64,000 bases of DNA from an uncultured Flavobacteriales bacterium (GTDB taxonomy: Bacteria; Bacteroidota; Bacteroidia; CAIKAF01), in contig CAIKAF010000029.1 of the NCBI GenBank assembly GCA_903825395.1, positions 62,001 through 126,000 on the forward strand, written 5' to 3'. The stretch's first letter is position 1. Every line of letters starts with the position of its first letter. The position numbers and the translations under genes were made by a program. Shown piece by piece: positions 1 to 57,637 of the stretch. The notes beneath the pieces were generated by a model. That model made no database searches, was not told where the DNA came from, and worked only from the letters and a program-made list of their open reading frames with translations.

Positions 1-1
1 G

Positions 2-4162: not shown

Positions 4163-4309
4163 GGGCGGTTGCGGGCTTTCACCGATAGTCCGCGGTTGCC
4201 GGTTGGGGCGGCAGCGGGCTGTGGTGGCTCCTGAAGTCGCCTCCTCGCCGCGCGCCGCCCAAACCGCCACCCTTGCGGGCTATCCGGTTCAATCCCTACC
4301 GCAAGCCCC
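4163..4309 (+). repeat. Structured dispersed repeat, copy A
   Basis: This 147-bp GC-rich element lies in the convergent gap after apbE, 11 nt past its stop and in the same orientation. It begins GGGCGGTTGCGGGCTTTC and ends TTCAATCCCTACCGCAAGCCC. It folds on itself: outer GCGGT/ACCGC, then GGG/CCC, GATAG/CTATC, GGGCGGC/GCCGCCC, and an apical GGTGGC (4223-4228) with GTCGCC (4236-4241). Relative to other copies, the outer helix changes a C-G pair to T-A and the GGTAG helix changes to GATAG with a compensating CTATC. The two short frames through it are shadows. Confidence 0.85.
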
Positions 4310-4335
4310 TCAAAAGAAAACCCATGTTCAACCCA

Positions 4336-5466
4336 TTAGGCCTTTAAATAAGGAAACCTATGCTTAAGGCGATTGATGGGACGCTCTAAAAATATCCAGG
4401 ATGCATGCGCCAATCCAAAGGTCAGTCCAACATATACCGCCAAGGTCCCAATTTCACCCAAACGGATATGCAGTAGGCTTGAAATCCTATGCGTCAGGCT
4501 AGGAACAAACAAATGGAATACATACAAGCCGTAAGAAATTTGTCCGGCATAGCGCACCCCCTTTGTCATTAAAATTCGCCCCATCCAACCCTTAAATCCA
4601 TGCATCGAGGCTTTGGCAATCAACAGCATAGACAGTAGGGCAAAAAAATACTCATCCACCATTTCTTTGTACCATATCCATTGAAACTTGATTTGCAGAA
4701 GCAAACCTGCCAGGTACAAGAAGAAAAGTACCGCCAGCCAGGAACTGCGGCCAAGCCGAAGGGCAAATGTGGGTCGATACCGCTGAATCCAGGCCAGAAT
4801 ACCGCCCATAGCCAATATTGGCATGCATGACAAGGTGAAATATGAGGTTGCCATCCATTTTCCTACCTCAACCGCCAAATAGATGCGGGTGGCCATTCCC
4901 AAAACTGCCATTCCTACCATGGCCCAAATTAGGCTCTTGGAACGGGGAAATGCCAAGAGTAACCAAGGCCAAAACAAATAAAATTGCTCCTCTACTCCCA
5001 ACGACCAAAAATGATTGAAATCGCCCACATAGGTGTTGTGTATGGATTGGTAGATGTTGGTGGTATAGCTGAGTAGCCATGGAAATAGTTCGCGGGCGTT
5101 TGGGTAATCAATCAGGAATAGACTGAAAATAACCATGTAATACAAGGGGAATATACGCAGGGTACGCCGAATATAGAACCGAATCATAAAGGGCAGGTAG
5201 CCTTGCCCATTCTCGGTTCGAATTTGATTTTCCTGAAGCAATATCCGGGTAATAAGAAAGCCGCTTAAAACAAAAAATAATGTTACTCCATGCACCAAGG
5301 GCAAGCCTTGCAGCAGGGGCTGGGTCCATTTCCATTGCCACCAATGCCCCAGCATTACCATGCCTACGGCCAAGACTCTTAGCCCATCCAGTTGGGGTAA
5401 ATACCCTGAATTTGTGCTGGAATTGGAAGCACCTTGGCTATCATAGAACGACCTTGAATTGCGCAT
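4336..5466 (-). CDS. Acyltransferase 3 (OafA/YrhL-like) membrane protein
   Basis: The 376-residue protein is read from the ATG at 5466 (an upstream TTG at 5481 is less likely). It has the acyltransferase-3 pattern: LPQLDGLRVLAVGMVMLGHW near the N-terminus with the catalytic-type His, FFVLSGFLITRIL, the basic RRTLRIFPLYY loop, and FWSLGVEEQFYLFWP, over about ten membrane helices. Family members O-acetylate or otherwise acylate cell-surface glycans, using cytoplasmic acyl-CoA. The polysaccharide genes at the left edge fit this, although they are on the other strand. It is downstream of the YfhO-like gene by 56 bp and may be cotranscribed. Confidence 0.85.
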   Translation of the reverse strand: MRNSRSFYDSQGASNSSTNSGYLPQLDGLRVLAVGMVMLGHWWQWKWTQPLLQGLPLVHGVTLFFVLSGFLITRILLQENQIRTENGQGYLPFMIRFYIRRTLRIFPLYYMVIFSLFLIDYPNARELFPWLLSYTTNIYQSIHNTYVGDFNHFWSLGVEEQFYLFWPWLLLAFPRSKSLIWAMVGMAVLGMATRIYLAVEVGKWMATSYFTLSCMPILAMGGILAWIQRYRPTFALRLGRSSWLAVLFFLYLAGLLLQIKFQWIWYKEMVDEYFFALLSMLLIAKASMHGFKGWMGRILMTKGVRYAGQISYGLYVFHLFVPSLTHRISSLLHIRLGEIGTLAVYVGLTFGLAHASWIFLERPINRLKHRFPYLKA

Positions 5467-5522
5467 TGATTCAGTTGGCAACCTCCGGATGAACGCATTC
5501 AGTCCTAGAGACCAATTTTAGG

Positions 5523-8102
5523 TTAAGCCTTTTGTTTACGCAAATTGAAAAGCCAGGTTCCCACCGCGCCCAACAGCAGTAAGGCAAGCAATGCCGATCC
5601 GGCTAAACTATAATTGGCTGAGGTTTCTACCACGTCGGGTTTAAAATACCAGCGAATGGTATGGGTTCCGGGGGCAGCCTCGATGGCCCTAAGCAAGTAG
5701 TTCGCCCGATAGCTTGGAATAGGCAACCCATCCATTTCAACCTTCCAGCCTTTATCATAGAAAATTTCGCTAAAAACAAGGGGCTGATATTCGGTTGATT
5801 TAACGGTGTAAACAATTTCTTCGGGGCTATACACCTCAACTTCTACTGTAGCTGTTGAATCGTAATTTCCTTTCCACGATTTAATGGATGATTTGAATTT
5901 TTCATCCACAAAAACAACATCTTTCAGGTTGTATGCTGTTTTAACAGCCTCCATTTCTTGATCTGGGCCTTTCACATATTCAATGTTTCTAGGAAACCAA
6001 GCCGCTCCGTAATGGTAGGGATTTTCAATCGGAGAACTTTTGGGATCAATAATAATGTATTTGGTGTTGAGCATATTCAGCCCTGCGCAACCGGCAAATG
6101 CTTTTTGAGCATCAAAAATGGTTTTTGCCCCCCTCATTCCTACTTGCATTAAATTCAAATCTGCATTGATTCGATTTTCCACAAATTCCTGATAGCGCTT
6201 TATTTTAGCCCCATGATATCCACCGATGGATTGGTGATAGAATGAGGTAGTTGCATCGTTAAATGGAGATACGGATAGGTTCAGCACACGGAGGCTTGGA
6301 TCTCCATCGTTCAAAATTACTCGGTCGGCTGCGGTTTGTGGCTGAGCTTGATCTTTGGGCTTAAACGCTTGATAGGCATTTTCATCCAAATAACGGCCTC
6401 CAACACTTCCAAGGTCAATAGCCACAATAAGCCCTAGGGCAATAGAGGTTTGCAATAGGGGAAGTTTTTTCTTTATGAACGCCCAAAGAAGAGCCGCTCC
6501 AAGCAGAAGAATAAGAATGCTTCTACCTAAATCGGCCCGTAAAATGGCAACCCGGCCCTTTTCCATGGCATCAATAATTTCGCCGGCAGCGTTTCCGGCA
6601 AGCCTGGAAATTTGATCGGCATCTTCTACCCGTACAATGTCTTGAAAAAGACTGGGAGCCACATAACTAATGCCCATAAAAGCAAAAGCCGCGATAAAGA
6701 TTCCTTTTCCCAACACCTCATAACTGAAATTAAATTCCTTTTTACCCAATTTGAAAGGTTCCTTCAAGCGTTGTGGCGATTCAAACAATTCGTTCAGGGT
6801 TAATCCAAAAAGTAGGGGCAATAAAAACTGAGGCACAACCATGATTGAATTGACGGCCCGGAATTTGTTGTACCCGGGAAAGAAATCAATGAACAAGTTG
6901 GTTAACCAGGGCGCATTTTTTCCTAATGCCAACCACATGGTGAGAATAAGGCCGGTTAAAATGACATATTTTAAACCAGATTGAATAAAAAAGAAACCGA
7001 ACAGGCTCAAGACTACAATCAATACACCCACATAAATAACTCCGCCGGCTGCGTCTTGGTAACCCCAATATTGATCGATGTACACATTTAGCCCTTGCTG
7101 CTGCGCCTGAATCTGAAAATTGCGAATGGGCTCCAATCCGCGGGCTCCAAGCGACTTTTCAGCCGTTTCATTGAGCAACAACAACCCATTTTTAGGGCCC
7201 TTATAATTGGGCACCATTAAAGCCAGAAAATCGCCCTTGGCATAGCTGTACCCAGTGATATAACTGCGTTGTAGTCCTCCGGTTTCTTCGTTTGGATCGG
7301 TTGAGGCCAAATTCGAACTCAATTCTGACGGGGCACGGGTGCTAAACTTTTGATATTCCAACACGGGCATGATGCGATTTAGGTTCGCTACCAAGGCTGC
7401 AGCCATGGCTACCGAGAGCAAACTTCCTCCAATAGCCAAGTGCTTTATATCGCCTGATTTAAGGCTGACAATGGCATGCTGAATCAACCAAAAGGCGACA
7501 AAGAAAACCATGTAGTAATAAATCATTTGGTAGTGTCCGGCCAGGATGGCACAGCTCATCATAATGCCTGTCATAGCCGCCCCCGCCAGGTATTTTTTTC
7601 GGGCTACCCAAGCCATACCTGCTATGACCCAAGGCAGGTAGCCAATGGTTTGAACTTTCCCAAAATGACCGGCAGCAAGAACCACCGCTACGTACGAGGT
7701 TAACCCAAAAGCAATGGCAGACAGGACTGAGGATTCTGTTCTGTTTTTGAAGGCAATCATCATCAGATAAAAGCCTGCCATAGCGGTCCACAGGTACATG
7801 GCTACCCGGCTAAGCCCTAAGCCTACAAGCCCATTTACTACTGGAGAAATAAAATTACCAAGGGGTTTGAAATAAATCAGGTAGTTTGGCATGCCTCCGA
7901 ACATTCGATTGGTCCACAAAGCCGGTCTTCCATTTTCCTTTTCAAAATCCATGGCTTGCATGGCGGCTCCTCTCCACATATCATCATCATGCGCCCTTAA
8001 TTCCATCCCATCAAAAAGCTCAGCTTTACCAATAATCATGGCGATAAGAAGCAAAGCCGCTAGGGCGATTGCGTGGGGGAGTAGGGGGCGAAAACGTTCC
8101 AT
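5523..8102 (-). CDS. YfhO-family polytopic membrane protein
   Basis: The start is placed at the ATG at 8102 (residues MERFRPLLP), 22 bp after the malic enzyme stop; an upstream frame extension to 8171 would overlap that gene. The 859-residue product has a first hydrophobic helix, an acidic-aromatic periplasmic loop, roughly a dozen further helices (GT-C-like architecture) and a soluble C-terminal region from about residue 590, with a final helix near the end (LAGSALLALLLLGAVGTWLF). This matches the YfhO family, annotated as membrane proteins or putative glycosyltransferases linked to glycolipid modification in some bacteria. The substrate is unknown; the family assignment is from overall pattern. 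Confidence 0.75.
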   Translation of the reverse strand: MERFRPLLPHAIALAALLLIAMIIGKAELFDGMELRAHDDDMWRGAAMQAMDFEKENGRPALWTNRMFGGMPNYLIYFKPLGNFISPVVNGLVGLGLSRVAMYLWTAMAGFYLMMIAFKNRTESSVLSAIAFGLTSYVAVVLAAGHFGKVQTIGYLPWVIAGMAWVARKKYLAGAAMTGIMMSCAILAGHYQMIYYYMVFFVAFWLIQHAIVSLKSGDIKHLAIGGSLLSVAMAAALVANLNRIMPVLEYQKFSTRAPSELSSNLASTDPNEETGGLQRSYITGYSYAKGDFLALMVPNYKGPKNGLLLLNETAEKSLGARGLEPIRNFQIQAQQQGLNVYIDQYWGYQDAAGGVIYVGVLIVVLSLFGFFFIQSGLKYVILTGLILTMWLALGKNAPWLTNLFIDFFPGYNKFRAVNSIMVVPQFLLPLLFGLTLNELFESPQRLKEPFKLGKKEFNFSYEVLGKGIFIAAFAFMGISYVAPSLFQDIVRVEDADQISRLAGNAAGEIIDAMEKGRVAILRADLGRSILILLLGAALLWAFIKKKLPLLQTSIALGLIVAIDLGSVGGRYLDENAYQAFKPKDQAQPQTAADRVILNDGDPSLRVLNLSVSPFNDATTSFYHQSIGGYHGAKIKRYQEFVENRINADLNLMQVGMRGAKTIFDAQKAFAGCAGLNMLNTKYIIIDPKSSPIENPYHYGAAWFPRNIEYVKGPDQEMEAVKTAYNLKDVVFVDEKFKSSIKSWKGNYDSTATVEVEVYSPEEIVYTVKSTEYQPLVFSEIFYDKGWKVEMDGLPIPSYRANYLLRAIEAAPGTHTIRWYFKPDVVETSANYSLAGSALLALLLLGAVGTWLFNLRKQKA

Positions 8103-8124
8103 AGGAAAGCGGTTTTTAAACGAA

Positions 8125-9309
8125 TTACAAACGGTCTTCGGGCCGAATGGCATCAAGGACAGCCTTGGCAACTTTAGGGCCCACAGACATATCTAAGGTT
8201 TCGGGTACTATGTTTTCTCGGTCAATATGTTCAACAGCCTCGGCAATAGCCAATGCGGCGGCAATTTTCATGCGGGTAGTGATGCGTCGAGCATGCCCAT
8301 CCAAAGCGCCTCGGAAAATACCGGGAAAAGCCAAAACGTTATTAATTTGATTGGGCAAATCGCTGCGGCCGGTTCCAACTACAGCAGCCCCCCCTTTGTA
8401 TGCCTCTTCGGGCATAATTTCAGGAACAGGATTTGCCAAAGCAAAGATGATGGCATCTTTAGCCATGGTGGCAATGTCTTCGGCTTTGAGTAAATTCTCT
8501 TGGCTGACGCCAATAAATACATCGGCTCCCTTCAATACATCATGCAAACTGCCGCTAACATTGTTGGGGTTTGTCCAGCTAAGCAGGCTACGCTTGGTGT
8601 CGTTCAAATCGGTTCTTCCGGCATGTACCACTCCTTTGGTATCGCATAAAATAACTTCTTTAACCGCTAGGCCTTGAAGGTCTTCACCCCGGGTGGCGCT
8701 GTCTAGAAGTTTCGCAATAGCCACCCCCGCAGCTCCAGCCCCATTGATTACAATTTTTAGGTCCTGGATATTTTTATTCAGCAATTTACATGCATTAATC
8801 ATGCCCGCTAGAACCACAACGGCTGTTCCATGTTGGTCATCGTGAAATACGGGTATGCCTAAATCTTGAAGGCGATCTTCAATTTCAAAACAACGGGGAG
8901 CCGAGATGTCTTCCAGATTAATTCCCCCGAAAACAGGAGCAATTCGCCGTATGGTTTCAATAACCTCTTCTGTATCTTGAGTATCCAAGCAAATTGGGAA
9001 GGCATCTACCCCTCCAAATTTTTTGAAGAGCATGGCTTTACCTTCCATGACAGGTAAGGCAGCCGAGGCCCCAATATTGCCCAAACCGAGTACAGCAGTG
9101 CCATCGGTTACTACTGCAACCATATTGCTTTTTATGGTGTATTTCCAAACGTCAGCGGGGTTGGCGTGAATCCGTTTGCATGGCTCTGCAACGCCAGGCG
9201 AATACAATAAACTTAGGCCATCGCGCGAATCAATGTCCATTTTCGCCTGAATTCCAATCTTTCCACGAAGCGATTCATGCAGGTTTAGGGACTCCTTAAA
9301 ATAATCCAT
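8125..9309 (-). CDS. NAD(P)-dependent malic enzyme, short form
   Basis: The 394-residue protein decarboxylates malate to pyruvate with NAD(P) reduction. Visible family features: the N-terminal malic domain with [15 protein letters not shown] and [20 protein letters not shown], the catalytic region [33 protein letters not shown] for the metal-binding acidic cluster, and a Rossmann region ([16 protein letters not shown]). Unlike MaeB it lacks the C-terminal phosphotransacetylase domain. The ATG at 9309 is preferred over the in-frame TTG at 9330, because a TAAGTTTG -7 box (9328-9335) lies 18 nt upstream of it. YfhO follows by 22 bp, probably in the same transcript. Confidence 0.92.
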
Positions 9310-9327
9310 ACAGGTGTTTTGGTTGGT

Positions 9328-9335
9328 CAAACTTA
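9328..9335 (-). promoter_or_regulatory. Putative -7 box (TAAGTTTG) for malic enzyme
   Basis: On the minus strand this reads TAAGTTTG, an exact match to the Bacteroidota TAnnTTTG element, 18 nt before the ATG at 9309. No clear TTTG at -33 was found. Confidence 0.5.
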
Positions 9336-9360
9336 GTAAAGAAATTGCTTGCTACCGCCG

Positions 9361-10434
9361 TTAACGGACGTAGCGGTAATCTTCGTTGCCTTTCATGCCC
9401 ACTACTACATTGTAAATCAGGTCAATAACCTTTTCGACATCCTCGGTGGCTACGGTCTCTACCGTGGTGTGCATGTATTTTAAAGGCAGAGAAATTAATG
9501 CACTTGGCACGCCTTCTCCGCTGTATGCGAAGGAATCGGTATCGGTACCCGTACTGCGTTCGGCTACAATGCGCTGGAACGAAATGCCAGCTGTAGTGGC
9601 GGTATCTATGATGCGGTCTAACAATAGATTGTGTACAGCTGCTCCATGTGAAAGTACTGGGCCGCGTCCACATGCAATATCGGCGTCTTCTTTGTTGTAG
9701 CCCGGAGATTGGGTGTCATGGGTTACATCGGTAATAATGGCCACATCAGGCTTAATGCGTCTTGAAATCATTTCTGCCCCCCGCAATCCGATTTCCTCTT
9801 GAACGGCATTCACCGCATACAAGGCGAAAGGCAATTGAATCTTATTTTCTTTTATGCGCCGCAATACTTCTGCAATCATAAATCCCCCCATGCGGTTATC
9901 CAAAGCTCTTCCTGTAATGTATCGGTCTCCGTTCAGCCAAGTTAAGCCATCGGTAAAGGTGGCCACACAGCCAATGTGAATACCCATGGCTAGCACTTCA
10001 TCCCTATTCTGCGCACCCACATCTAAAAATATACTTTTCATATTGGGAGCGGCCTCATCTTTATCTCGAGGGCGAACATGGATGGCGGGCCAACCGAAAA
10101 TGGCAGGAATTAATCCTTTTTTGGTATGGATAACAGCCCGCATGCTAGGCGCAATCACAGCATCGCTGCCCCCATTCCGCTTTAAGGTGATGTAGCCTTT
10201 CTCGCTGATGTTGGCAACAAACCAAGCAATTTCATCGGCATGCGCTTCAATCACTACTTTAAAAGGGGCATTAGGGTTGACTATGGCCGCCACCGATCCA
10301 TATGGATCAGTCAGATAGCTGTCTGAATAGGGCTTAACGTAATCAAGCCAGATTTGCTGCCCCGGGGCTTCGTGACCGGTGGGCGAATAATTGTTTAAGT
10401 AACGGCTTAAAAACTCCTTCGATTGTGTATCCAT
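9361..10434 (-). CDS. M42 family metallopeptidase (glutamyl aminopeptidase-like)
   Basis: The 357-residue protein is a cytosolic-type M42 peptidase with no signal peptide. Metal and catalytic motifs are in family order: EAHADEIAWFV (first His and Asp), GRALDNRMGGF (bridging Asp), VNAVQEEIGLRGA (catalytic and metal Glu pair), ITDVTHDT, and a late LKYMHTTVETV His. M42 enzymes are dodecameric aminopeptidases that trim short peptides; some were annotated as endoglucanases by mistake. It is downstream of rpmH, separated by a strong terminator, and 51 bp upstream of the malic enzyme start. Confidence 0.9.
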   Translation of the reverse strand: MDTQSKEFLSRYLNNYSPTGHEAPGQQIWLDYVKPYSDSYLTDPYGSVAAIVNPNAPFKVVIEAHADEIAWFVANISEKGYITLKRNGGSDAVIAPSMRAVIHTKKGLIPAIFGWPAIHVRPRDKDEAAPNMKSIFLDVGAQNRDEVLAMGIHIGCVATFTDGLTWLNGDRYITGRALDNRMGGFMIAEVLRRIKENKIQLPFALYAVNAVQEEIGLRGAEMISRRIKPDVAIITDVTHDTQSPGYNKEDADIACGRGPVLSHGAAVHNLLLDRIIDTATTAGISFQRIVAERSTGTDTDSFAYSGEGVPSALISLPLKYMHTTVETVATEDVEKVIDLIYNVVVGMKGNEDYRYVR

Positions 10435-10450
10435 AACTGAGGATGAAAGT

Positions 10451-10475
10451 AAAAAAAAAGCCCCAACAAGGGGCT
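10451..10475 (-). terminator. Rho-independent terminator after rpmH
   Basis: On the minus strand a perfect 6-bp stem AGCCCC/GGGGCT with a 5-nt loop is followed by nine T residues. It lies 21 nt past the rpmH stop. Confidence 0.9.
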
Positions 10476-10495
10476 ACAATAAGCGGTTTGCTCTT

Positions 10496-10657
10496 CTATT
10501 TTTTAGGATAGAATTCGTCAGAAACGGTTAGACGCTTGCGTCCACGACGGCGGCGCGCAGCTAAAACACGGCGGCCATTGGCCGTTGACATTCGCTTCCG
10601 AAAACCATGTTTATTTCTTCTCTTGCGAATGGAGGGTTGAAACGTTCTCTTAGACAT
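10496..10657 (-). CDS. rpmH: 50S ribosomal protein L34
   Basis: This 53-codon gene was found by translating the minus strand. The product begins [20 protein letters not shown] and continues with the hallmark [20 protein letters not shown], which is diagnostic of L34; a Bacteroidota-type tail [11 protein letters not shown] ends it. L34 is a small basic protein of the large ribosomal subunit. Neighbours such as rnpA or dnaA, common in other phyla, are not adjacent here. It has its own terminator downstream and a probable promoter 39 nt upstream. Confidence 0.97.
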
Positions 10658-10696
10658 GACGATGTGTTAATCAGTAAGCAATCAAAAATTGGATTG

Positions 10697-10727
10697 CAAA
10701 AATAGGCTTTCCTTTTTAAATCACCAA
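10697..10727 (-). promoter_or_regulatory. Putative rpmH promoter (TTG-N20-TATTTTTG)
   Basis: Minus strand TATTTTTG (10697-10704) matches TAnnTTTG, with TTG (10725-10727) 20 nt further upstream. This fits Bacteroidota sigma-A spacing. It is 39 nt before the rpmH ATG. Confidence 0.5.
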
Positions 10728-10785
10728 CTTTTATTCATATCAAGCCAGCTGGAATATGGCAATTTCTTCCTCATTCAAGCCCCAA

Positions 10786-11463
10786 TCAATTCTTAAAGGG
10801 AGAATCGCCTTGATGCAATCGAATGGCTTTTTTTGATAAAAACACGCTGATGGCAAAGGTGGCTATGGCTCCCAACAGGGTTAATATACCCCAGCTTTGA
10901 AATAAAAAGAAATCGAAAAGCCCATGCAGTATTGCCGCGAAAAGTAGGGTGGGAATCAATACGGGGAGTTCCGGATTCATTTTTTTTATTCCCAGAGCAA
11001 ATCCAAGCAAAATGCCCCAGGTAGCATGGGCAGGAACCGATAAAAAGGCCCGCATTATTCCTATTGCTACTCCATGCTCTGTTACATACATAATGTTTTC
11101 AAGGGTGGCAAAACCCATGGCCGACATAACACAATAGGTTATTCCGTCAAATGGCTCGTTGAATATCTTTTTTGGATAGATAAACCAACGTACAAAAATG
11201 AATTTGCAAAATTCCTCGATCAATCCAATTCCAAAAATGCAGGAAAGAAGAGAAATCCATATTTGTTCAGATTGGGGTTCAGATCCCAGCAGTTGGGCCA
11301 ATACCGATAAGATTACGGTTGGAATAACACTCAATGCTCCAAGCAGAAAGGCGAATAGGAGCCACTGCAGAGGTTCTTTCTCCCATTTGTCTTTCCAAAA
11401 TATATAAATTCCAATGGCCAACCCGGGGGCAATGGCTAAGGCAATCAATTCTAAATTAGGCAT
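10786..11463 (-). CDS. PrsW-like intramembrane glutamic protease family protein
   Basis: The 225-residue membrane protein has about seven hydrophobic helices. It carries the PrsW signature: an N-terminal DKWEKEPLQWLLFAFLLGA motif and GLIEEFCKFIFVRW (EExxK-type glutamates), followed by FDGITYCVMSAMGFATLEN (GxxxE-type) and a later His-containing helix (SVPAHATWG). In Bacillus, PrsW cleaves the anti-sigma factor RsiW; many homologues in other phyla have unknown targets. No sigma/anti-sigma pair is adjacent. The gap to rpmH holds the rpmH promoter, so this gene ends before it on the same strand. Confidence 0.85.
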   Translation of the reverse strand: MPNLELIALAIAPGLAIGIYIFWKDKWEKEPLQWLLFAFLLGALSVIPTVILSVLAQLLGSEPQSEQIWISLLSCIFGIGLIEEFCKFIFVRWFIYPKKIFNEPFDGITYCVMSAMGFATLENIMYVTEHGVAIGIMRAFLSVPAHATWGILLGFALGIKKMNPELPVLIPTLLFAAILHGLFDFFLFQSWGILTLLGAIATFAISVFLSKKAIRLHQGDSPFKN

Positions 11464-11578
11464 ATAAATAAGTTCCTAGGCTCAAGATATGGTTTTTTTA
11501 TGGCAGAGCGAAACCATTCAAGCCTCATTCAGGTTAAGGCACTATACTTTTAGTGGCAGTTATTTTAACCCCTTACGA

Positions 11579-14011: not shown

Positions 14012-14024
14012 AACGGAATGAGGT

Positions 14025-15932: not shown

Positions 15933-15945
15933 GGAACTCATGGCT

Positions 15946-19459: not shown

Positions 19460-19609
19460 GGGCGGCAGCCGGGCTTTCACAGGTTGTCCGCGCCCGCCGG
19501 AAGGCTGGCCCAGCGGGCTTGCGGTGGCTCCTAAAGTCGCCTCCGCGCCGCGCGGGCCAGGCTCCGGCAGGCTTGCGGGCAACCTTGTTCAATCCCTGCC
19601 GCAAGGCCC
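19460..19609 (+). repeat. Structured dispersed repeat, copy B
   Basis: This 150-bp element sits in the 325-bp convergent gap after the FAD oxidase, in the same orientation. It starts GGGCGGCAGCCGGGCTTTC and ends TTCAATCCCTGCCGCAAGGCCC (19588-19609, given in two parts: TTCAATCCCTGCCGCA then AGGCCC). Helices: GCGGC/GCCGC, GGG/CCC, GGTTG/CAACC (replacing GGTAG/CTACC), CTGGCCC/GGGCCAG, and the apical GGTGGC/GTCGCC. The rest of the gap holds the zinc-peptidase terminator. Confidence 0.85.
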
Positions 19610-24244: not shown

Positions 24245-24393
24245 GGGCTGCGGCAGGGATTGAGCCAGGTAGCCCGCAGCGTTGCCGGCGCAAGCTGACG
24301 CGAGGCGAGGAGGCGACGTAAGGAGCCACCGCAGCCCGCTGTCAGCTCGCCCGGCAACCGAGGACTACCGGTGAAAGCCCGGCTGCCGCCCCC
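24245..24393 (-). repeat. Structured dispersed repeat, copy C
   Basis: This 149-bp element is read on the minus strand, 26 nt after the lptC stop and in the same direction. It has the standard termini (5' GGGCGGCAGCCGGGCTTTC, 3' TCAATCCCTGCCGCAG). Helices: GCGGC/GCCGC, GGG/CCC, GGTAG/CTACC, GTTGCCGG/CCGGCAAC, apical GGTGGC/GTCGCC with loop TCCTTAC. A spurious frame on the same strand crosses it. Confidence 0.87.
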
Positions 24394-28557: not shown

Positions 28558-28630
28558 TGGTACCAGTTGGAATCGAACCAACGACACAAGGATTTTCAGT
28601 CCTTTGCTCTACCAACTGAGCTATGGTACC
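28558..28630 (-). tRNA. tRNA-Phe (GAA)
   Basis: A 73-nt cloverleaf on the minus strand. Acceptor arms GGTACCA and TGGTACC pair; the D arm is AGCTCAGTTGGTAGAGC; the anticodon loop CTGAAAA gives GAA for Phe; the T arm contains GGTTCGATTCC. The discriminator is A, and CCA is not encoded. A terminator follows directly. Confidence 0.97.
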
Positions 28631-37261: not shown

Positions 37262-37403
37262 GGGCCCCCGATTGAACCGGCAGGAAAGCTGGCAACGGGT
37301 GCAATGGCTTGGTGCGAGGAGGCGACCTTGGGAGCCACCGCAGCGCCATAAGCCATTTACCCGTTGACAGTTTGACTACAGGTGAAAGCGGGAAATGGCC
37401 CCC
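37262..37403 (-). repeat. Structured dispersed repeat, divergent copy D
   Basis: This 142-bp copy on the minus strand is 6 nt after the esterase stop, in the gap with atpC. Its ends differ: 5' GGGGGCCATTTCCCGCTTTC, and 3' TTCAATCGGGGGCCC. The helix next to CTTTC/CAAT is CCG/CGG where others have GGG/CCC, a double compensatory change. The arm pairs as CAACGGGT/ACCCGTTG and AATGGCTT/AAGCCATT. The apical core is kept (GGTGGCTCCC and GTCGCCTCCTCGC). Confidence 0.78.
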
Positions 37404-41245: not shown

Positions 41246-41393
41246 GGGCGGCGGACGGGCTTTCAGCGCTACTCCGCAGTCCTCTTGGGGCCACAGGTGG
41301 CATAGCAGTAGCTCCCAGGGTCGCTCTGCCATGCCGCCTGTGGCAGCCCAAGCGTTCTTTGCGGGGTAGCTGCTTCAATCCCTGCCGCAGGCC
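41246..41393 (+). repeat. Structured dispersed repeat, antisense copy E
   Basis: This 148-bp copy is plus-oriented between two minus genes (Hpt stop at 41397, NSS start at 41177), so it alone has no upstream gene in its own direction. Termini: GGGCGGCGGACGGGCTTTC and TTCAATCCCTGCCGCA. Helices: GCTAC/GTAGC replacing GGTAG/CTACC, TTGGG/CCCAA, GCCACAGG/CCTGTGGC and GGCAT/ATGCC. The apical core is altered (GTAGCTCCC, GTCGCT) relative to the others. Confidence 0.82.
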
Positions 41394-45815: not shown

Positions 45816-45826
45816 AAGAACAAGAG

Positions 45827-48277: not shown

Positions 48278-48309
48278 GCGTCTTTGTTTTTTTCAGAACA
48301 AAGAACTTA

Positions 48310-48326
48310 TTTAGAATAATTCTAAA
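48310..48326 (-). promoter_or_regulatory. Fur/PerR-type operator palindrome
   Basis: TTTAGAATAATTCTAAA is a perfect palindrome with arms of 8 around one base; its 7-1-7 core resembles PerR/Fur boxes (TTATAATNATTATAA type). It lies 33 bp upstream of the FecA-like receptor ATG, where a repressor would block transcription. A fur-family gene is at 54.1 kb. Confidence 0.65.
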
Positions 48327-48355
48327 CAATCCCATAATCAGGGGGATTTTTCGGG

Positions 48356-48379
48356 AATATCCCCTGTTTAGGGGGTATT
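48356..48379 (-). terminator. Hairpin at the end of the TPP-riboswitch TonB receptor
   Basis: AATATCCCC (48356-48364) pairs with GGGGGTATT (48371-48379) around a 6-nt loop, ending at the stop codon. The T-tract on the minus strand is poor, and GGGGAT can also pair with a further ATCCCC, so termination is uncertain. Confidence 0.4.
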
Positions 48380-50744
48380 AATTTAGGGACAAAGTAAATC
48401 CAGCCATAAAATGCCGGCCAGCCATGGGATACACAAAATTTTCGGTAATGGATTGTCCACCAAAAATATAGCTAAATGAATAGCCATTTGGTGCATATCT
48501 GGCATTCCAAAGATTAAATACGGTACAGTGCAACCCAACACCAAGGCCATTTTTCCAATTTTTTTGCCAATGTATGCCTAAATCACTGGTATAATACGCT
48601 GGCAAACTTCGGGAAATTTCTCCGGTGTTATCTAGGAATTGCCGCCCAACGCCTTTATGTGCCCAGTGGATTTCCATTCCTTTTAATGGGGAAATAACCA
48701 AGGTGCCTGCGGCCGTCCAATCGGGCGAGAAAGCAATAGGTGTATTCCCGCGTGCAATGGCTATTTGGCCTCCATTGTCGTAGTCATCCATATATTCAAT
48801 GAAATTCAAAATCCGATTTTGACTGTAGCTAAAATTTCCTGTTACCCATAAAAAGGGTTTGGGTTTTATCATGCATTCGATTTCTGCCCCAATTCTGTAG
48901 CTCCTAGAGGCATTGGTCCTTGTGTACGCCCCAACATCATTGATTGCTCCGGTAAGTACAAGTTGGTCGGTGTAGTCCATCCAAAATCCAGTAATTCGCG
49001 TCCACCATTTTTGCCCCGAAATGCGGTACGCAAGTTCCAAATCTCGAAGTACTTCATGCTTGGGTTTTTGATTTGGCCCCGTTTCATAATCTACCCGATT
49101 TGGTTCTTTTTGCGTCAGTCCAAAAAAGGCTGAAAATTCTTGATTTTGAATGGGATTCCAGGTTATCCCACCTCTAGGGTTTACAAAATGAAACCGATCT
49201 TCCACCTGAATAGAAGGTTGGCCAGCAAATCCTTGAATGCTGTAGTTTACCCCTCGGTATTGAACATCGGCGTGAATGACAACATCAGCCCCCATTTGGC
49301 AGGTTGCTCTTGCAAAGGCATTGTATTCCGTTTTTTCAGCGGGATGGTCATAGTACCTCAGGTTGTATCCGTTTTCTGGAGCATATTGAGCCCAATTTAG
49401 CGTTCCAAAATGCTGACCTAAATACTGGTACAAACCCAATCCCCCATTGAATGACCAGCGTTTGTTTGACCAGCTAAGCACGGCGTTTCCTCCAAAAAAA
49501 TGATTGTCTAGCCACAATCGGCGAATGACATCAGAAGTATCCCTGAAATCACCAAGACCAGCTATTCCATAGTTGGTCATCAACTCTTTCACTTTGTATT
49601 GCTCATAAAATCCGCGGCCTTTTGTGTAGAACCCAGCCGTTCGAAGAATCAGATTTTCTTTAAATCGATGGGTGAAAAAAAGCTGGTAATGGTCCTGTTG
49701 ATAATTGTCGGTTTCATTTTCATAAGGTGTGTTTCTTTTTCCATTATCGGTTCCCGCTGAATTAAAGGTGGGAATGGAATCGGCCAATGCCTGGGGTACT
49801 CCATACCAGGCTTGGTAGGTTATTTCCTTGCCAGAAAAGGCATGAAAAATCAGCGAAGATTTTTTCCCATGATACGCCGTCTTTAAGTAATACGACCGCA
49901 AGTCGCTGCTGGCTCGATCGATAAATCCATCCGACTGAATTTTTGAAAGTCGGAGTTCGGCCGAAAATCCCGGGCCCAATCGGCCGGTTCCAATTTCTAT
50001 GGTGTTTCTCAATGAGTTAAAACTGCCTCCGGAAAATCGGTACCTGGCAAAGGGGCTATCTGACTGTTCCAGGGTATTCAAGTGAATGGCTCCACCAAAC
50101 GAACCTGCCCCTTGCGTACTTGTTCCTGCTCCGCGTTGTACTTCTATACTTCCGGTCGAGCTCACCAAATCAGGAGTGTTTACCCAAAAAACACCCTGAG
50201 ATTCAGGGTCATTCACCGGGATTCCATTAATGGTTACATTGATTCGGGTTTGGTCGGTGCCCCGAATCCGAATGCCGGTATATCCGATGCCCGCCCCGGC
50301 ATCTGAATGCGTAACCACCGAAGCTGATTGGTCGAGCATTACAGGTAAATCTCTTCCCGTGTTCAAGGGTTCTAAATCTGATTTTTCAAATCTTGTGAAG
50401 GTTACAGGAACTCCGCTGCTGGCTTCAACAACCCGAACTAGGTACTCCGGCTGAACATACATAAATGGTTTTAATTGAAGATTTTTGGGACATTCACCAA
50501 GGGCATTTGCCGCGATTAGCGTATCGGTTTCAAAACCTAGAAATCGGATTATCCATTTTTGCCCTGGGGCATACGGCAATTCAAGCATTCCGTTTTGGTC
50601 TGAAATCCGAACTAAAAAACCATCGGAAGCGGTAGCCCCAACTAAAGGTCGTTGGGTGCTTTCTGAACGCAACTGCAGGCTCCACTGACCATAAACAAGC
50701 ATGATGCTGCTCCAAAAAAGATTGATAAGGACGATTTTTTTCAT
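48378..50744 (-). CDS. TonB-dependent receptor under TPP riboswitch control (thiamine uptake candidate)
   Basis: The start is the ATG at 50744 (or 50750); the frame continues into the riboswitch. The 788-residue product has a signal peptide (IVLINLFWSSIMLVYGQ), a short CarboxypepD-like domain, a plug (GIGYTGIRIRGTDQTRINVT, PDLVSSTGSIEVQRGAGTST, GAGSFGGAIHLNT) and a barrel ending in a polar residue. A TPP riboswitch precedes it, so it probably imports thiamine or a precursor such as thiamine phosphate. It is known that B. thetaiotaomicron has a TPP-regulated TonB receptor (OMPthi). No thiamine biosynthesis gene is adjacent. Confidence 0.87.
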   Translation of the reverse strand: MKKIVLINLFWSSIMLVYGQWSLQLRSESTQRPLVGATASDGFLVRISDQNGMLELPYAPGQKWIIRFLGFETDTLIAANALGECPKNLQLKPFMYVQPEYLVRVVEASSGVPVTFTRFEKSDLEPLNTGRDLPVMLDQSASVVTHSDAGAGIGYTGIRIRGTDQTRINVTINGIPVNDPESQGVFWVNTPDLVSSTGSIEVQRGAGTSTQGAGSFGGAIHLNTLEQSDSPFARYRFSGGSFNSLRNTIEIGTGRLGPGFSAELRLSKIQSDGFIDRASSDLRSYYLKTAYHGKKSSLIFHAFSGKEITYQAWYGVPQALADSIPTFNSAGTDNGKRNTPYENETDNYQQDHYQLFFTHRFKENLILRTAGFYTKGRGFYEQYKVKELMTNYGIAGLGDFRDTSDVIRRLWLDNHFFGGNAVLSWSNKRWSFNGGLGLYQYLGQHFGTLNWAQYAPENGYNLRYYDHPAEKTEYNAFARATCQMGADVVIHADVQYRGVNYSIQGFAGQPSIQVEDRFHFVNPRGGITWNPIQNQEFSAFFGLTQKEPNRVDYETGPNQKPKHEVLRDLELAYRISGQKWWTRITGFWMDYTDQLVLTGAINDVGAYTRTNASRSYRIGAEIECMIKPKPFLWVTGNFSYSQNRILNFIEYMDDYDNGGQIAIARGNTPIAFSPDWTAAGTLVISPLKGMEIHWAHKGVGRQFLDNTGEISRSLPAYYTSDLGIHWQKNWKNGLGVGLHCTVFNLWNARYAPNGYSFSYIFGGQSITENFVYPMAGRHFMAGFTLSLN

Positions 50745-50799
50745 ATCCATAACAAGGTTTAAATACACTACCTCAGGATACGGCGAAACCGAAACCGCT

Positions 50800-50879
50800 A
50801 CCTCCGCCGGTATTACCCGGATCAGGTTCTGCTGCAAGAGCATCGGGTATTATCTCAGCCTTTTTGGGCACCCCGAGGT
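50800..50879 (-). ncRNA. TPP riboswitch (THI element)
   Basis: On the minus strand the order matches the TPP aptamer: CGGGGTGCC, then GGCTGAGATAATACCC, then GAACCTGATCCGGGTAATAC and CGGCGGAGG. The closing helix P1 is ACCTC (50875-50879) with GAGGT (50800-50804). It ends 55 nt before the TonB receptor ATG. A second GAGGT copy (50770-50774) could pair with the same ACCTC in the ligand-free form. Confidence 0.95.
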
Positions 50880-50935
50880 GGAACAAATGTATGAAAAGAA
50901 TGCTAAATGTTGCTGTACGATATGCCCCCCACCAC

Positions 50936-54107
<3,172 letters not shown>

Positions 54108-54115
<8 letters not shown>

Positions 54116-54602
54116 GACAATCAGAAGATTTTTGAGGCGGGCTTATCAGCTTATTCGAACAATCCGTCCGGGTACAATCCCCATGCAAGATAAACGAATG
54201 CGACCGTATGGAAAACCCAAGTAAATCTCCGATACTCATATGAATGTGGTGCAGTCGGGGCTCACAAAACTCGGTGACCTGCTGACATTGATTGCAAATT
54301 AAATGGTGGTGCTGACTGTGTCCAACCGATTTTTCGTATTGAGCAAGACTACTTCCAAACTGGTGCTTTCGTACCAAATTGCAATCCACCAATAAATCAA
54401 GGGTGTTGTATACCGTGGCACGACTTACCCTGTAGTTTTTGGCTTTCATGCTTTCAAACAGCTCATCGACATCAAAATGTTCGTTTCGACTGTACACTTC
54501 ATCCAAAATGGCAAAACGCTCCGGTGTTTTCCGCAACTGATTCTTTTCAAGGTGTTCTGAAAACAACTGCTTTACATGCTCAAATGAAGATCTCGAACTC
54601 AT
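54108..54602 (-). CDS. Fur-family transcriptional regulator
   Basis: The 164-residue protein has the Fur winged helix (EKNQLRKTPERFAILDEVYS, YRVSRATVYNTLDLLVDCNL) and the metal-binding dimerisation part (HSQHHHLICNQCQQVTEFCE). CxxC is in CNQC and a second pair is CTRTDC, the usual structural zinc site. It could be Fur, PerR or Zur. An 8-1-8 palindrome at 48310 is a candidate target. The gene overlaps relA by 4 bp (ATGA) and STAS by 8 bp. Confidence 0.92.
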
Positions 54603-56854
54603 GTGGTTGAGGTGTTTTCAGTGATGCGTTCCACCCTCAACACGCCTTTAACCTGTTTGATTTTTTCCAACAGTTCGTCTAAGTGACGCGTATGTTCAAC
54701 AAAAAGGGTCATTCTGCCCTCAAAGATACCATCATTCGAATCGAAACTCAGAGACCGTATGTTAACTTTCATCTGATTCGATATCAATTTGGTAATTCGG
54801 TTGACCATGCCCACTTCGTCAAAGCCGGTCAAATAAATTCCCACCAAAAAAGCCGGAATTTCACTGCCAGTCCATTTTGCCTTTATAACCCGATACGCAT
54901 AATTCGATAACAATGACACAGCATTCGGACAGTTGGTCTTATGAATTTTAATGCCTTCGCTTACAGTCACAAATCCAAAAACCTCATCGCCTGGAATGGG
55001 GTTGCAGCACGGAGCCAACTTATAATCCAAGGTATCTAGGTTGTCCCCAAGCAGCAATTGATTTTCTTCCTGCTTTATTTTATGAAGGATTTCTTTTCCT
55101 CCTTCTGCCGTTCGTTTTTTTATTTCGGGATTGCGAGAAAACTTCTGGCTCAAATATTTATACCAACTCCGAACCCCTTCATTTTTATAAAAATCTCGAA
55201 TCTGCTGTGAGCTGATGCTCCCCTTGCCAATCCGATAAAATAAATCCAAGGATTCATCCAACCCAAAATGCTGAATCATTTTCTGAACGTCCGATTCAGA
55301 ATAGTTGATCTTCAATCGACGAAGCTTGCGTTTCAAAAGCTCTTTCCCCTCCTCGGCAACGCTTCTTTTCTCCTCTTTTAAGGCCGATTTAATCCTAGAC
55401 TTTGCTTTGCTGGTGACTACAAAGTGGAGCCAGTCTTCGTGTGGCTTTTGCTTGGAAGAACTAATGATTTCTACCTGATCTCCAGAAGTTAATTTATGCG
55501 ATAGGGGCAGCAGCTTGTTGTTTACTTTGGCCCCCAAACAATGATCCCCCAATTCACTATGAATTTCATAGGCAAAATCCAATGCCGTACTGCCCAATGG
55601 TAAGGTGCGCAATTCTCCTTTTGGGGTGAACAAATAGATTTCATCATTGAATAAATTCAGCTTGAAGGAGTCCAATAAATCCAAGGCCTCTCCCTCCCGA
55701 AAATTATCCAGCAATTCCCGCACTTTCAATAGCCATTCATCCAATCCCGATTCCCCATTCTCGCCTTTGTATTTCCAATGGGCGGCATAGCCTTTTTCGG
55801 CTACTTCATCCATCCTTCGGCTTCGAATTTGAACCTCTACCCATTTTCCGGTAGGACTCATTACGGTGGTGTGTAGCGATTCATATCCATTGGCCCTAGG
55901 AAAACTAATCCAATCCCTCAATCGATCTGGCTTTGGCTGATACACATCGGTGATAATGGAATAGCTGCGCCAAATCTCAGATTTCTCCTTCTCTGGCTCT
56001 ACATCTAAAATGATTCGGATGGCGAAAATATCGTAAATCTCGTCGAAAGGAACTCCCTTGTTTTTGATTTTATTCCAAATCGAATACATGGATTTGGTAC
56101 GTCCTTTTATTTCAAACCGCAATCCCCCTGCCTGTAAATTACGACGTATTGGTCCTATAAAACTCGATATAAACCGGTCGCGTACTTCTTTGCTTTTCTG
56201 TAATTTCTGTTCGATTTCTCCATACACATCCGGCTCTAAATACCTCAATGCCAAATCTTCCAACTCCGATTTGATGTTGAATAAACCCAGCCGGTGAGCC
56301 AAAGGAGCATACAAGTACATGGTTTCTGATGCAATTTTCAACTGCTTGTCACGCCGCATATGGTCTAGCGTTCGCATGTTGTGCAACCGATCTGCAATTT
56401 TGATTAAAATGACCCGAACATCCTCCGAAAGGGTTAAAATTATTTTTTTGAAATTCTCGGCTTGAATGGATTCAGTAAAGTCAAATACGCCTTCAATTTT
56501 AGTCAGCCCATCAATGATGTTTCGAACCTTTTTCCCAAACAATCGCTCCATGTCATCTAAGGTCAAGTCGGTATCCTCCACGGTATCGTGCAGCAAGGCT
56601 GCAACCACCCCGGTGGCCCCCAAACCAATCTCCTCAGCTACAATTCGAGCAACTGCAATAGGATGATAAATGTAAGGCTCCCCACTTTTCCTGCGCATAT
56701 CCTTGTGCGCATCCAAGGCCAAATTGAAGGCCTTACGAATTGTTTTTTTATCGGCCGAATGGCTGATGTGCTTGGAGGCCGCACGCAACAAACCACGGTA
56801 ACGGCGTAAAATATCTGAATTTTCTTCCTGTAGAGCCTCCTCGGTAAGATTCAT
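54599..56854 (-). CDS. Bifunctional (p)ppGpp synthetase/hydrolase (RelA/SpoT)
   Basis: The start is the ATG at 56854 (MNLTEEALQEEN), just 5 nt after a TATCTTTG box; the upstream ATG at 56878 is before the box. The 751-residue protein has an intact HD hydrolase (GVVAALLHDTVEDTDLTLDD), the synthetase domain (KSMYSIWNKIKNKGVPFDEI), TGS (IYLFTPKGELRTLPLGSTAL) and a C-terminal ACT. Both activities are therefore likely. It is the first gene of a five-gene overlapping operon ending in ostA. Confidence 0.93.
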   Translation of the reverse strand: MNLTEEALQEENSDILRRYRGLLRAASKHISHSADKKTIRKAFNLALDAHKDMRRKSGEPYIYHPIAVARIVAEEIGLGATGVVAALLHDTVEDTDLTLDDMERLFGKKVRNIIDGLTKIEGVFDFTESIQAENFKKIILTLSEDVRVILIKIADRLHNMRTLDHMRRDKQLKIASETMYLYAPLAHRLGLFNIKSELEDLALRYLEPDVYGEIEQKLQKSKEVRDRFISSFIGPIRRNLQAGGLRFEIKGRTKSMYSIWNKIKNKGVPFDEIYDIFAIRIILDVEPEKEKSEIWRSYSIITDVYQPKPDRLRDWISFPRANGYESLHTTVMSPTGKWVEVQIRSRRMDEVAEKGYAAHWKYKGENGESGLDEWLLKVRELLDNFREGEALDLLDSFKLNLFNDEIYLFTPKGELRTLPLGSTALDFAYEIHSELGDHCLGAKVNNKLLPLSHKLTSGDQVEIISSSKQKPHEDWLHFVVTSKAKSRIKSALKEEKRSVAEEGKELLKRKLRRLKINYSESDVQKMIQHFGLDESLDLFYRIGKGSISSQQIRDFYKNEGVRSWYKYLSQKFSRNPEIKKRTAEGGKEILHKIKQEENQLLLGDNLDTLDYKLAPCCNPIPGDEVFGFVTVSEGIKIHKTNCPNAVSLLSNYAYRVIKAKWTGSEIPAFLVGIYLTGFDEVGMVNRITKLISNQMKVNIRSLSFDSNDGIFEGRMTLFVEHTRHLDELLEKIKQVKGVLRVERITENTSTT

Positions 56855-56859
56855 ACCTT

Positions 56860-56867
56860 CAAAGATA
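56860..56867 (-). promoter_or_regulatory. Putative -7 box (TATCTTTG), 5 nt from the relA ATG
   Basis: Minus strand TATCTTTG is an exact TAnnTTTG match; five bases (AAGGT) separate it from ATG 56854. Confidence 0.5.
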
Positions 56868-56999
56868 CCAATTTCCATAGGTTTCTGTTCATACGCATGT
56901 CATTATTTCCCTGGATTGATTTTTGACTTTTCGGCAGAAAACCCCCTGTTCTTTGGCTTTGTTTCCTTACTTTTAAGGGCAGTTTAATATGCTCTTTTT

Positions 57000-57461
57000 A
57001 TGTCTATTTTAAAAGAATTTAAGCAGTTCGCTATGAAAGGCAATGCCATGGAATTGGCGGTGGCCTTTATTATGGGCGGGGCTTTTGGTAAGATTGTATC
57101 GTCCTTGGTGGCCGACGTAATTATGCCTCCATTGGGCTTGGTGGTGGGTGGAGTGAATTTTTCTCACCTGAAGCTTACGCTCAAGTCTGCCATTCCACAA
57201 AAGCTCGAGCAGGGTAGGGTAGTCCAAGAGGCCGTGGCCGAGGTGTCTCTGAATTATGGGATTTTTCTGCAGAATGTGCTGGATTTTATCATTATTGCTT
57301 TTGCCATGTTTTTGGCCGTCAAAGCAATCAATACGGTGAAGGCAAAAATTGCCGAGGAAGAGCAAAAGGAGGCAGAACGCTCCGAACCTTCCGAAGAGGT
57401 GCAGCTGCTGCAACAGATCCGCGATGCCCTTCTTAAAGACTCGCAAAAGAAGGCAGATTAA
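57000..57461 (+). CDS. mscL: Large-conductance mechanosensitive channel
   Basis: The 153-residue protein has the MscL layout: an N-terminal amphipathic helix (MSILKEFKQFAMKGNAMELA), TM1 (VAFIMGGAFGKIVSSLVADV) and TM2 (GIFLQNVLDFIIIAFAMFLA), with a charged C-terminal bundle (EEEQKEAERSEPSEEVQLLQ). It opens under membrane tension in osmotic downshock. The opposite-strand frame through it is a shadow. Repeat copy F begins 29 nt after its stop. Confidence 0.96.
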   Translation: MSILKEFKQFAMKGNAMELAVAFIMGGAFGKIVSSLVADVIMPPLGLVVGGVNFSHLKLTLKSAIPQKLEQGRVVQEAVAEVSLNYGIFLQNVLDFIIIAFAMFLAVKAINTVKAKIAEEEQKEAERSEPSEEVQLLQQIRDALLKDSQKKAD

Positions 57462-57490
57462 GCCGCAATTTTAATTTTTTCTCTTTTTAA

Positions 57491-57637
57491 GGGCGGCAGC
57501 CGGGCTTTCTCAGGTAGTCTGCCGATGCCCGGCGGGGTGGCAGCCGGCTGCGGTGGCTCCTCACGTCGCCTCCTCGCCAGGCGCCACCAGCCGCCGGAAC
57601 ACGGCAGAGCTACCTTGTTCAATCCCTGCCGCAGCCA
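57491..57637 (+). repeat. Structured dispersed repeat, copy F (closest to consensus)
   Basis: This 147-bp copy after mscL (same direction) starts GGGCGGCAGCCGGGCTTTC and ends TTCAATCCCTGCCGCAGCC. Helices: GCGGC/GCCGC, GGG/CCC, AGGTAG/CTACCT, CTGCCG/CGGCAG, and the apical GGTGGC/GTCGCC with loop TCCTCAC. It lies in the gap convergent with ftcD. Confidence 0.88.

What the first reader, a model, noticed from the sequence alone, without database searches (positions are those of the whole stretch)
4163..57637. Six-copy family of covarying, hairpin-forming intergenic elements
Copies A-F (4163-4309, 19460-19609, 24245-24393, 37262-37403, 41246-41393, 57491-57637) are all 142-150 bp and GC-rich. They share a 5' end like GGGCGGCAGCCGGGCTTTC, a 3' end like TTCAATCCCTGCCGCA, and an apical GGTGGCTCC-N4-GTCGCCTCC. 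Between these, both arms differ between copies but stay complementary. For example the GGTAG/CTACC helix of C and F is GATAG/CTATC in A, GGTTG/CAACC in B and GCTAC/GTAGC in E. Compensatory change in every helix means the fold is maintained while sequence is free to drift. This is seen directly. Whether it is an RNA, a REP-like mobile palindrome or a protein-binding DNA hairpin is inference. I have an unverified impression that GGGCTTTC...CAATCCCT ends occur in other Bacteroidota, so novelty is not claimed.
Basis: seen in the sequence. Interest (0 to 1): 0.9.

Follow-up and report, generated by a model that had tools for sequence, protein, structure and literature searches.

The report
Dispersed Flavo-1-like DNA hairpin elements
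Six look-alike foldable DNA segments in this window belong to a family of at least 150 copies in one Bacteroidota genome, relatives of the unexplained Flavo-1 motif, and the way they evolve suggests that they work as folded DNA rather than as an RNA.

Summary
All six copies fold better than any of 200 shuffles. The own genome has at least 150 copies, about one per 10 kb in the 892 kb examined. On 44 copies, 28 of 42 pairs show two-sided changes, not reached in 500 shuffles.

They miss the Rfam threshold but are relatives of Flavo-1 (RF01705): same internal loop and strand, with weak hits by both models at the same places in other relatives. They are a longer, GC-rich variant.

Between two species, pooled copies differ at 1.9% of sites, against 9.8% in other intergenic DNA and 13.8% at third codon positions: strong purifying selection.

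Evidence against RNA: no orientation preference at tandem genes (20:18); no G-U excess (68:61; tRNAs 26:0); a published RNA-seq passage on Flavo-1 (PMC9723704).

Same-orientation copies rarely lie within 5 kb (2:19; second genome 4:25). Y1 transposase is absent from two of four element-rich genomes, reverse transcriptase from all four. An IntI/XerA-like recombinase beside some copies is a lead only. Verdict: a new variant of a known, unexplained kind, probably DNA-level.

The parts
4163..4309 (+). copy A, between convergent genes (ApbE family; acyltransferase)
19460..19609 (+). copy B, between convergent genes (FAD-linked oxidase; zinc peptidase); orthologous copies in G001 and G005 with compensatory differences
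24245..24393 (-). copy C, between tandem genes (CNNM/CBS protein; LptC-like); present in G001 and G003, none detected in G005
37262..37403 (-). copy D, divergent copy with swapped outer pairs, between convergent genes (V/A-type ATPase subunit; esterase); present in G003, none detected in G001 and G005
41246..41393 (+). copy E, different apex type; orthologous site in G001 and G005 keeps the outer half but carries two other apical modules
57491..57637 (+). copy F, between convergent genes (MscL; formiminotransferase-cyclodeaminase)
57501..57509 (+). copy F: 5' side of the internal loop (CGGGCTTTC; reads GAAAGCCCG on the Flavo-1 strand); GCTTTC is invariant in 44 copies
57552..57573 (+). copy F: apex GGTGGCTCC-TCAC-GTCGCCTCC (minus strand GA-C(GTGA)G-GA)
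57619..57626 (+). copy F: 3' side of the internal loop (TCAATCCC; reads GGGATTGA on the Flavo-1 strand); TCAATC is invariant in 44 copies
57466..57490 (+). T-rich stretch before copy F; such a stretch precedes copies whatever the direction of the upstream gene (T fraction at -6..-2: 0.70 sense, 0.72 antisense)

Best explanation
The six segments are members of a high-copy chromosomal hairpin family that is a long, GC-rich, genus-level variant of the Flavo-1 motif (RF01705). The most likely mode of action is at the DNA level. The imperfect palindrome can be extruded as a hairpin or cruciform. One strand (GGGATTGA ... GAAAGCCC) then shows a conserved tandem G.A internal loop and a GA-C(NNNN)G-GA apex, which a host protein recognises. 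Each copy is a local chromosomal site, so selection keeps pairing and loops while stem sequence drifts by paired changes. Copies arise and are lost slowly, favour the space between convergent genes, and are rare as close direct repeats. Shown here: family size, covariation, kinship with Flavo-1, purifying selection, placement, the rarity of close same-orientation pairs, and the absence of reverse transcriptase (four element-rich genomes) and of Y1 transposase (two of them). Inferred: extrusion, the recognising protein, and the cellular role (chromosome organisation or recombination control).
For: Covariation. Flavo-1 kinship: two elements of other genomes with the same ends hit RF01705 on the strand opposite to the GGGCTTTC strand; L077, L078 and L082, brought in by R1 from other relatives, are hit by R1 (45.2, 43.7, 35.0 bits) and, below its cut-off of 42, by Flavo-1 (27.8, 26.1, 30.1 bits; E 0.044, 0.13, 0.01) at the same place on opposite strands; the middle pair of the shared loop itself changes in a paired way (GGGATTGA/GAAAGCCC versus GGGATAGA/GATAGCCC, read by eye). 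Selection: element 84/4320 differences and 0 gaps (about 30 copies pooled), intergenic 1482/15166, codon positions 1/2/3 3.1/1.5/13.8%. Apex: 84 of 84 occurrences of the core in 892 kb have first/last loop letters C-G, T-A or G-A on the minus strand. DNA rather than RNA: tandem-gene contexts 20 sense and 18 antisense; mismatches GT 68, AC 61 in paired columns, against 26 and 0 in 16 tRNAs; PMC9723704 passage on Flavo-1. Same-orientation pairs under 5 kb: 2 against 19 in G000, 4 against 25 in G005. Chromosomal: copy F has no match in 72,556 plasmid and 50,697 phage records, and the exact apex occurs in 1 of 2.9 million viral contigs.
Against: No DNA-binding partner was found and no function was tested. 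The wobble test leaves out one column where T.G is conserved (78 of 107), which on the plus strand could be a kept U-G pair, and alignment noise (327 other mismatches) blurs it. Close direct repeats could be purged by ordinary deletion, without any function. In G005 the excess of opposite neighbours is slight (60 against 39, p = 0.044). Weinberg et al. (PMC2864571, Table 1, passage) mark Flavo-1 as a likely RNA, and Rfam files it as sRNA. Apex loops such as GTGA and CTTG also suit RNA (recalled).
Confidence: 0.45

Rival explanations
1. A structured RNA (Flavo-1-like sRNA or mRNA 3' element) transcribed from the GGGATTGA strand, with tandem G.A loop and GNRA/CUUG-like apex.
For: Rfam family type and strand; loops CTTG 37, GTGA 7, GCGA 4, GTAA 1 of 84 on that strand; strong covariation.
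Against: No orientation preference at tandem genes; no G-U excess on either strand against 26:0 in tRNAs; PMC9723704 reports Flavo-1 hits in sense or antisense alike and many outside transcribed regions (passage read); 28 of 84 loops are TTTA, not a classic RNA tetraloop (recalled).
Confidence: 0.25
2. A selfish, non-autonomous mobile element (REP/MITE-like) moved by a transposase or recombinase; the fold is what the enzyme reads.
For: Gain or loss at orthologous sites (copy D in G000/G003 only; a G005 copy just past a terminator-like sequence, judged by eye, that is element-free in G000). An IntI/XerA-like tyrosine recombinase gene starts 68 bp after an element in G005, and three C-terminal fragments lie about 40, 410 and 300 bp after elements, same strand (coordinates): 4 of 5 hits that I judged non-Xer in G000 and G005, against 31 of 728 genes with an element so placed (P about 1.6e-5, or 2e-4 as 4 of 8 if the three G001 fragments are counted as misses; post hoc).
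Against: 39 of 39 G000/G003 site pairs are occupied in both (the G003 contigs had been chosen because they hold elements); elements evolve about five times slower than other intergenic DNA, which mere passengers should not; no Y1_Tnp in G001 and G005, no RVT_1 in G000, G001, G003, G005; R1 finds no element near relatives of the recombinase on 4 plasmids and 12 of the 80 viral loci.
Confidence: 0.2
3. A 3'-end device: bidirectional transcription terminator or mRNA-stabilising hairpin.
For: Convergent gaps are favoured (27 of 73 copies against 68 of 360 background gaps) and divergent ones hold fewer (8 of 73 against 73 of 360).
Against: Few T-runs follow the hairpin (TTTT within 15 nt downstream in 4 of 78, upstream in 49 of 78); a simple hairpin would not need invariant unpaired letters, nor rarity of close same-orientation pairs.
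Confidence: 0.07
4. No selection on the fold: palindrome-correcting template switches make arms match.
For: Whole apical modules are exchanged at orthologous site E while the outer half is kept.
Against: Unpaired loop letters are invariant and not 'corrected'; in 39 close ortholog pairs 33 paired cells changed on one side and only 2 on both, neither to a standard pair; elements are far more conserved than other intergenic DNA.
Confidence: 0.03

Closest known systems
Flavo-1 RNA motif (RF01705; Weinberg et al. 2010, PMC2864571)
   Same: Internal loop GAUUGA/GAAAGC, strand, long hairpin with variable arms, many copies per genome (22 of 22 scored candidates in each of eight genomes of one unnamed genus), Bacteroidota.
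   Different: 142-150 bp and GC-rich against a 76-position, AU-rich model; the side hairpin near the base seen in several Flavo-1 loci (by eye) is missing; extra conserved apex; below the gathering score in the window (none up to E=5 around copy F) and in the own genome (best 27.6 bits against 42 among 107 scored of 455 candidates).
REP elements and RAYT (Y1 transposases)
   Same: High-copy intergenic palindromes.
   Different: Much longer than the 20-40 bp of REPs (PMC3733652, abstract in search listing); no Y1 transposase match in element-rich G001 and G005. The own genome's RAYT-like gene in L002 sits among its own GAGACGCAC palindromes.
Integron attC sites
   Same: Folded, structure-conserved, sequence-poor hairpins (recalled); a recombinase of the IntI/XerA type lies beside some copies.
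   Different: Scattered in both orientations; no IntI above its cut-off in any of 6 genomes (the G005 protein scores 196.6 bits against 265). The attC core was not searched for.

Membership tests
Flavo-1 (RF01705) | reaches the Rfam gathering score (42 bits) | tested here: not met
   no hit in window; none up to E=5 around copy F; own genome best 27.6 bits; 107 of 455 candidates scored
Flavo-1 (RF01705) | GAUUGA ... GAAAGC internal loop on the same strand | tested here: met
Flavo-1 (RF01705) | intermediates linking the two | tested here: inconclusive
   L077, L078, L082 are hit by R1 (E 6.2e-8 to 9.5e-6) and weakly, below cut-off, by Flavo-1 (E 0.01 to 0.13) at the same place on opposite strands
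REP/RAYT | 20-40 bp palindrome with GTAG or CGTC tag | tested here: not met
   142-150 bp; the internal GGTAG is not invariant; definition from title and abstract of PMC3733652 in the listing
REP/RAYT | Y1 transposase in genomes with many copies | tested here: not met
   0 matches in G001 and G005; 3 in G000, 2 in G003
Group II intron / retron derivative | reverse transcriptase in the genome | tested here: not met
   RVT_1 absent from G000, G001, G003, G005
Intrinsic terminator | hairpin followed by T-run | tested here: not met
   TTTT within 15 nt downstream in 4 of 78
Integron attC | integron integrase above cut-off | tested here: not met
   0 of 6 genomes over cut-off
Integron attC | attC core sequence | not tested
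   no search was run for it
Integron attC | recombination at the site by the integrase | not testable with these tools
   needs an assay

The most novel reading that the evidence does not exclude
The whole Flavo-1 superfamily, filed as sRNA, is a family of structure-read DNA sites: hundreds of dispersed, attC-like hairpins in Bacteroidota chromosomes that were spread by, and may still be paired by, an IntI/XerA-like tyrosine recombinase, and that were domesticated as chromosomal sites in which close neighbours alternate in orientation.
Probability: 0.12. Interest if true: 0.9.

Novelty: new variant of a known kind. Interest (0 to 1): 0.62.

Why it matters
Flavo-1 is listed among the most abundant small RNA families, with no function given (PMC9029176, passages), and RNA-seq in Flavobacterium psychrophilum gave no clue to its role (PMC9723704, passage). 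A second, longer variant with about 260 copies per genome (extrapolated) gives the power to ask whether it is RNA at all. Two results are testable elsewhere: pooled conservation close to that of second codon positions, and the rarity of same-orientation copies within about 5-8 kb. If it is DNA, an Rfam family is misfiled and Bacteroidota have a widespread chromosomal hairpin system for which I know no close parallel.

Tried and rejected
RAYT as driver: the two RAYT-like genes of the own genome (L002, L003) have an element or element part nearby, but L002 sits among GAGACGCAC palindromes of its own and G001/G005 have no Y1 match.

Insertion behind terminators: suggested by one G005 site and the upstream T-run, but the T-run is there whatever the gene direction, and only 1 of 72 copies has a simple perfect hairpin before it.

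Extended pairing of the flanks: mean duplex energy -7.32 against -6.78 (sd 0.18, 20 permutations); weak, in a subset of copies. A 3' tail with CTC within 14 nt is in 40 of 78 copies, against 11 and 7 in shifted windows.

Regular spacing (CV 0.56 against 0.92, 0 of 2000) as a separate finding: not claimed. Forbidding same-orientation neighbours within 8 kb brings the null close (27 of 600 simulations as regular in the strict set, 169 of 600 in the wider set), and the incomplete lists of 150 are not clearly regular (CV 0.74 in G000, 0.91 in G005).

Flavo-1 gene context in G206: a pattern search of the 400 kb fetched gave one copy, and Rfam on 7 of the 20 stretches gave none, so no test was possible.

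Target-site duplication: no vacant site among the 39 close pairs, so none could be read.

Inversion by recombination between A and a neighbouring copy: the flip exists, but the copy orientations in G001/G005 do not fit a simple exchange.

Papers: the search for the two end sequences found 9 papers, 8 listed, with unrelated titles, none opened; 'Flavo-1 RNA' none; of the listings only PMC2864571 was opened, and there only passages were seen. I saw no account of the long variant.
Full report
Observation. Each folds better than 200 of 200 shuffles. In the own genome (2,625,067 bases, 33 contigs) copy F finds 41 places by BLAST, itself included, with 40 of 206 first-look candidates scored. I aligned 44 copies (A2). 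RNAalifold gives 42 pairs, 28 with two-sided changes, and the same structure counted with controls stays far above shuffles and slid partners. The covariance model R1 matched 150 of 150 scored candidates at E <= 4.7e-18, out of 683 first-look candidates, so 150 is a floor. In 891,706 bases taken as stretches there are 88 copies, which extrapolates to about 260 per genome. The window holds only the six at that threshold.

Anatomy. On the plus strand as aligned: T-rich stretch, GGGCGGCAG-C-CGGG, CTTTC, variable stems, apex GGTGGCTCC-N4-GTCGCCTCC, variable stems, TCAAT, CCCTGCCGC, and in about half of the copies a CTC tail (40 of 78). On the other strand the invariant unpaired letters make sense: GGG-ATTGA facing GAAAG-CCC has two U/T-A pairs next to tandem G.A, and the apex reads GA-C(NNNN)G-GA (my reading). 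All 84 occurrences of the apex core in 892 kb have loop ends C-G (39), T-A (29) or G-A (16); random letters would give 3 in 16. That strand is the one on which Rfam models Flavo-1.

Kinship. Rfam at threshold finds only a tRNA in the window. A scan of 395 genomes of the phylum with the two ends gave 189 matches in the own genome, and in G139, G234, G411 and G326 sequences such as GGGCTTTCCGCTATATCTTTT...AAAAGGATGCCGC-TCAATCCC. Two of these loci hit Flavo-1 above gathering. Flavo-1 is over its cut-off in 21 of 198 genomes, with all 22 scored candidates matching in each of eight genomes of one genus, yet 400 kb of one of these (G206) held a single clear copy. In the same family as the window, G006, G008 and G012 have Flavo-1 over the cut-off. 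L077, L078 and L082, which R1 found in other relatives (from the order of scores I take them to be other genera of the same family; not checked), are hit by R1 and weakly by Flavo-1 at the same place on opposite strands. The loop's middle pair swaps as a pair between subfamilies. I therefore call the window elements Flavo-1 relatives, not Flavo-1 members.

Evolution. The window region is collinear with G001 and G005 (about 68-78% identity) and with G003 (87-95%). B and E are shared by G000, G001 and G005; C is not detected in G005; D is not detected in G001 and G005; one copy of G001 and G005 is missing in G000; one G005 copy is missing in G000 and decayed in G001. Orthologous copies differ by paired changes, and at E three different apical modules sit on the same outer half. 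For G000 against G003, 39 distinct sites were compared and all are occupied in both. The G003 contigs were picked for holding elements, so that direction is biased. From the G003 side 40 copies had both flanks placed in G000: 36 with the gap expected for a full copy (163-170) and four with 199, 307, 621 and 911, each of which also spans a listed G000 copy. Divergence is 1.94% in elements, 9.77% in intergenic DNA, and 3.1, 1.5 and 13.8% at codon positions 1, 2 and 3; an earlier count on the 39 pairs gave 1.67% in elements, 4.2% and 8.1% in 150 bp up- and downstream. ORFs were called by a simple longest-frame rule, which adds noise.

DNA or RNA. Gene context on the plus strand: (+,-) 27, (+,+) 20, (-,-) 18, (-,+) 8 of 73 placed copies, with 5 more inside small ORFs; background gaps 68, 100, 119 and 73 of 360. 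So convergent gaps are favoured, divergent ones hold fewer, and tandem genes show no strand preference. Within paired columns of 107 copies there are 68 GT and 61 AC mismatches after leaving out column 28-125, which has T.G in 78 copies. In 16 tRNAs of the same genomes the numbers are 26 and 0. A fold that must work on one RNA strand should show the tRNA pattern. [quoted passage not shown] The conserved T.G column speaks against this reading, or at least against a simple version of it.

Arrangement. Neighbouring copies in the 892 kb are in opposite orientation 60 times and in the same 22 times at E<1e-3 (46 and 26 at E<1e-9). In lists of the 150 scored copies, pairs closer than 5 kb are 2 same and 19 opposite in G000, 4 and 25 in G005; all neighbours 80 against 41 in G000 and 60 against 39 in G005. 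The two genomes share some sites, so these are not fully independent. Simulations that forbid same-orientation neighbours within 8 kb come close to the observed spacing variation and share of opposite neighbours. Deletion between direct repeats is the simplest cause; polarity of a functional site is the other.

Movement. There is no Y1 transposase match in G001 and G005, but there are three in G000 and two in G003; no reverse transcriptase in the four element-rich genomes; copy F has no match on plasmids or phages. The last genome search, for integron integrase, opened a lead. G005 has a 380-residue IntI/XerA-like tyrosine recombinase whose gene begins 68 bp after an element on the same strand. 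C-terminal fragments follow elements in G005 (about 40 and 410 bp, from coordinates) and in G000 (about 300 bp). One further G005 fragment (C14:42578) has no listed element. That is 4 of the 5 hits I judged non-Xer by length, against a base rate of 31 of 728 genes. The test is post hoc; three G001 fragments and many in G002 and G004 could not be checked. Near relatives of the recombinase elsewhere R1 found no element: 4 plasmid loci and 12 of the 80 viral loci; Rfam found no Flavo-1 in the 4 plasmid loci and L389. In G000 and G003 an Xer-length recombinase match also begins 138 bp after an element (coordinates), but its G001 counterpart has none nearby (L388).

Conclusion. I rate a DNA-level, selected hairpin site the best reading, an RNA the main rival, and a recombinase-spread attC-like site the boldest reading still open.

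Noticed in passing
window 1-4120 with flank, G000:C29 about 61751-66120: A 4.4-kb segment bounded in G000 by a weak element (minus, E 1.5e-6) and copy A (plus) is inverted relative to G001 and G005, which have one element at one junction.
   Followed up: partly
L385 1207-2349 (G005:C29): IntI/XerA-like tyrosine recombinase next to an element; G002 and G004 carry many C-terminal fragments of such recombinases, often with stops.
   Followed up: partly
L469-L472: Four Bacteroidota plasmids carry similar recombinases, most of them followed by small codirectional genes, an integron-like layout.
   Followed up: no
L002 1445-2297: RAYT-like gene among six copies of a GAGACGCAC...GTGCGTCTC palindrome, one of them beside or inside a remnant of an element.
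   Followed up: partly
G000:C5 70569/70748, C23 150708/150933, C10 79692/79969; G005:C16 45368/45554, C27 17904/18053: Head-to-head pairs of elements less than 300 bp apart; the six pairs under 1 kb in the two lists (4 and 2) are all plus then minus.
   Followed up: no
L003 1386-1475: 18-bp tandem repeats inside the RAYT-like gene.
   Followed up: no
window 28558-28630: tRNA on the minus strand.
   Followed up: no
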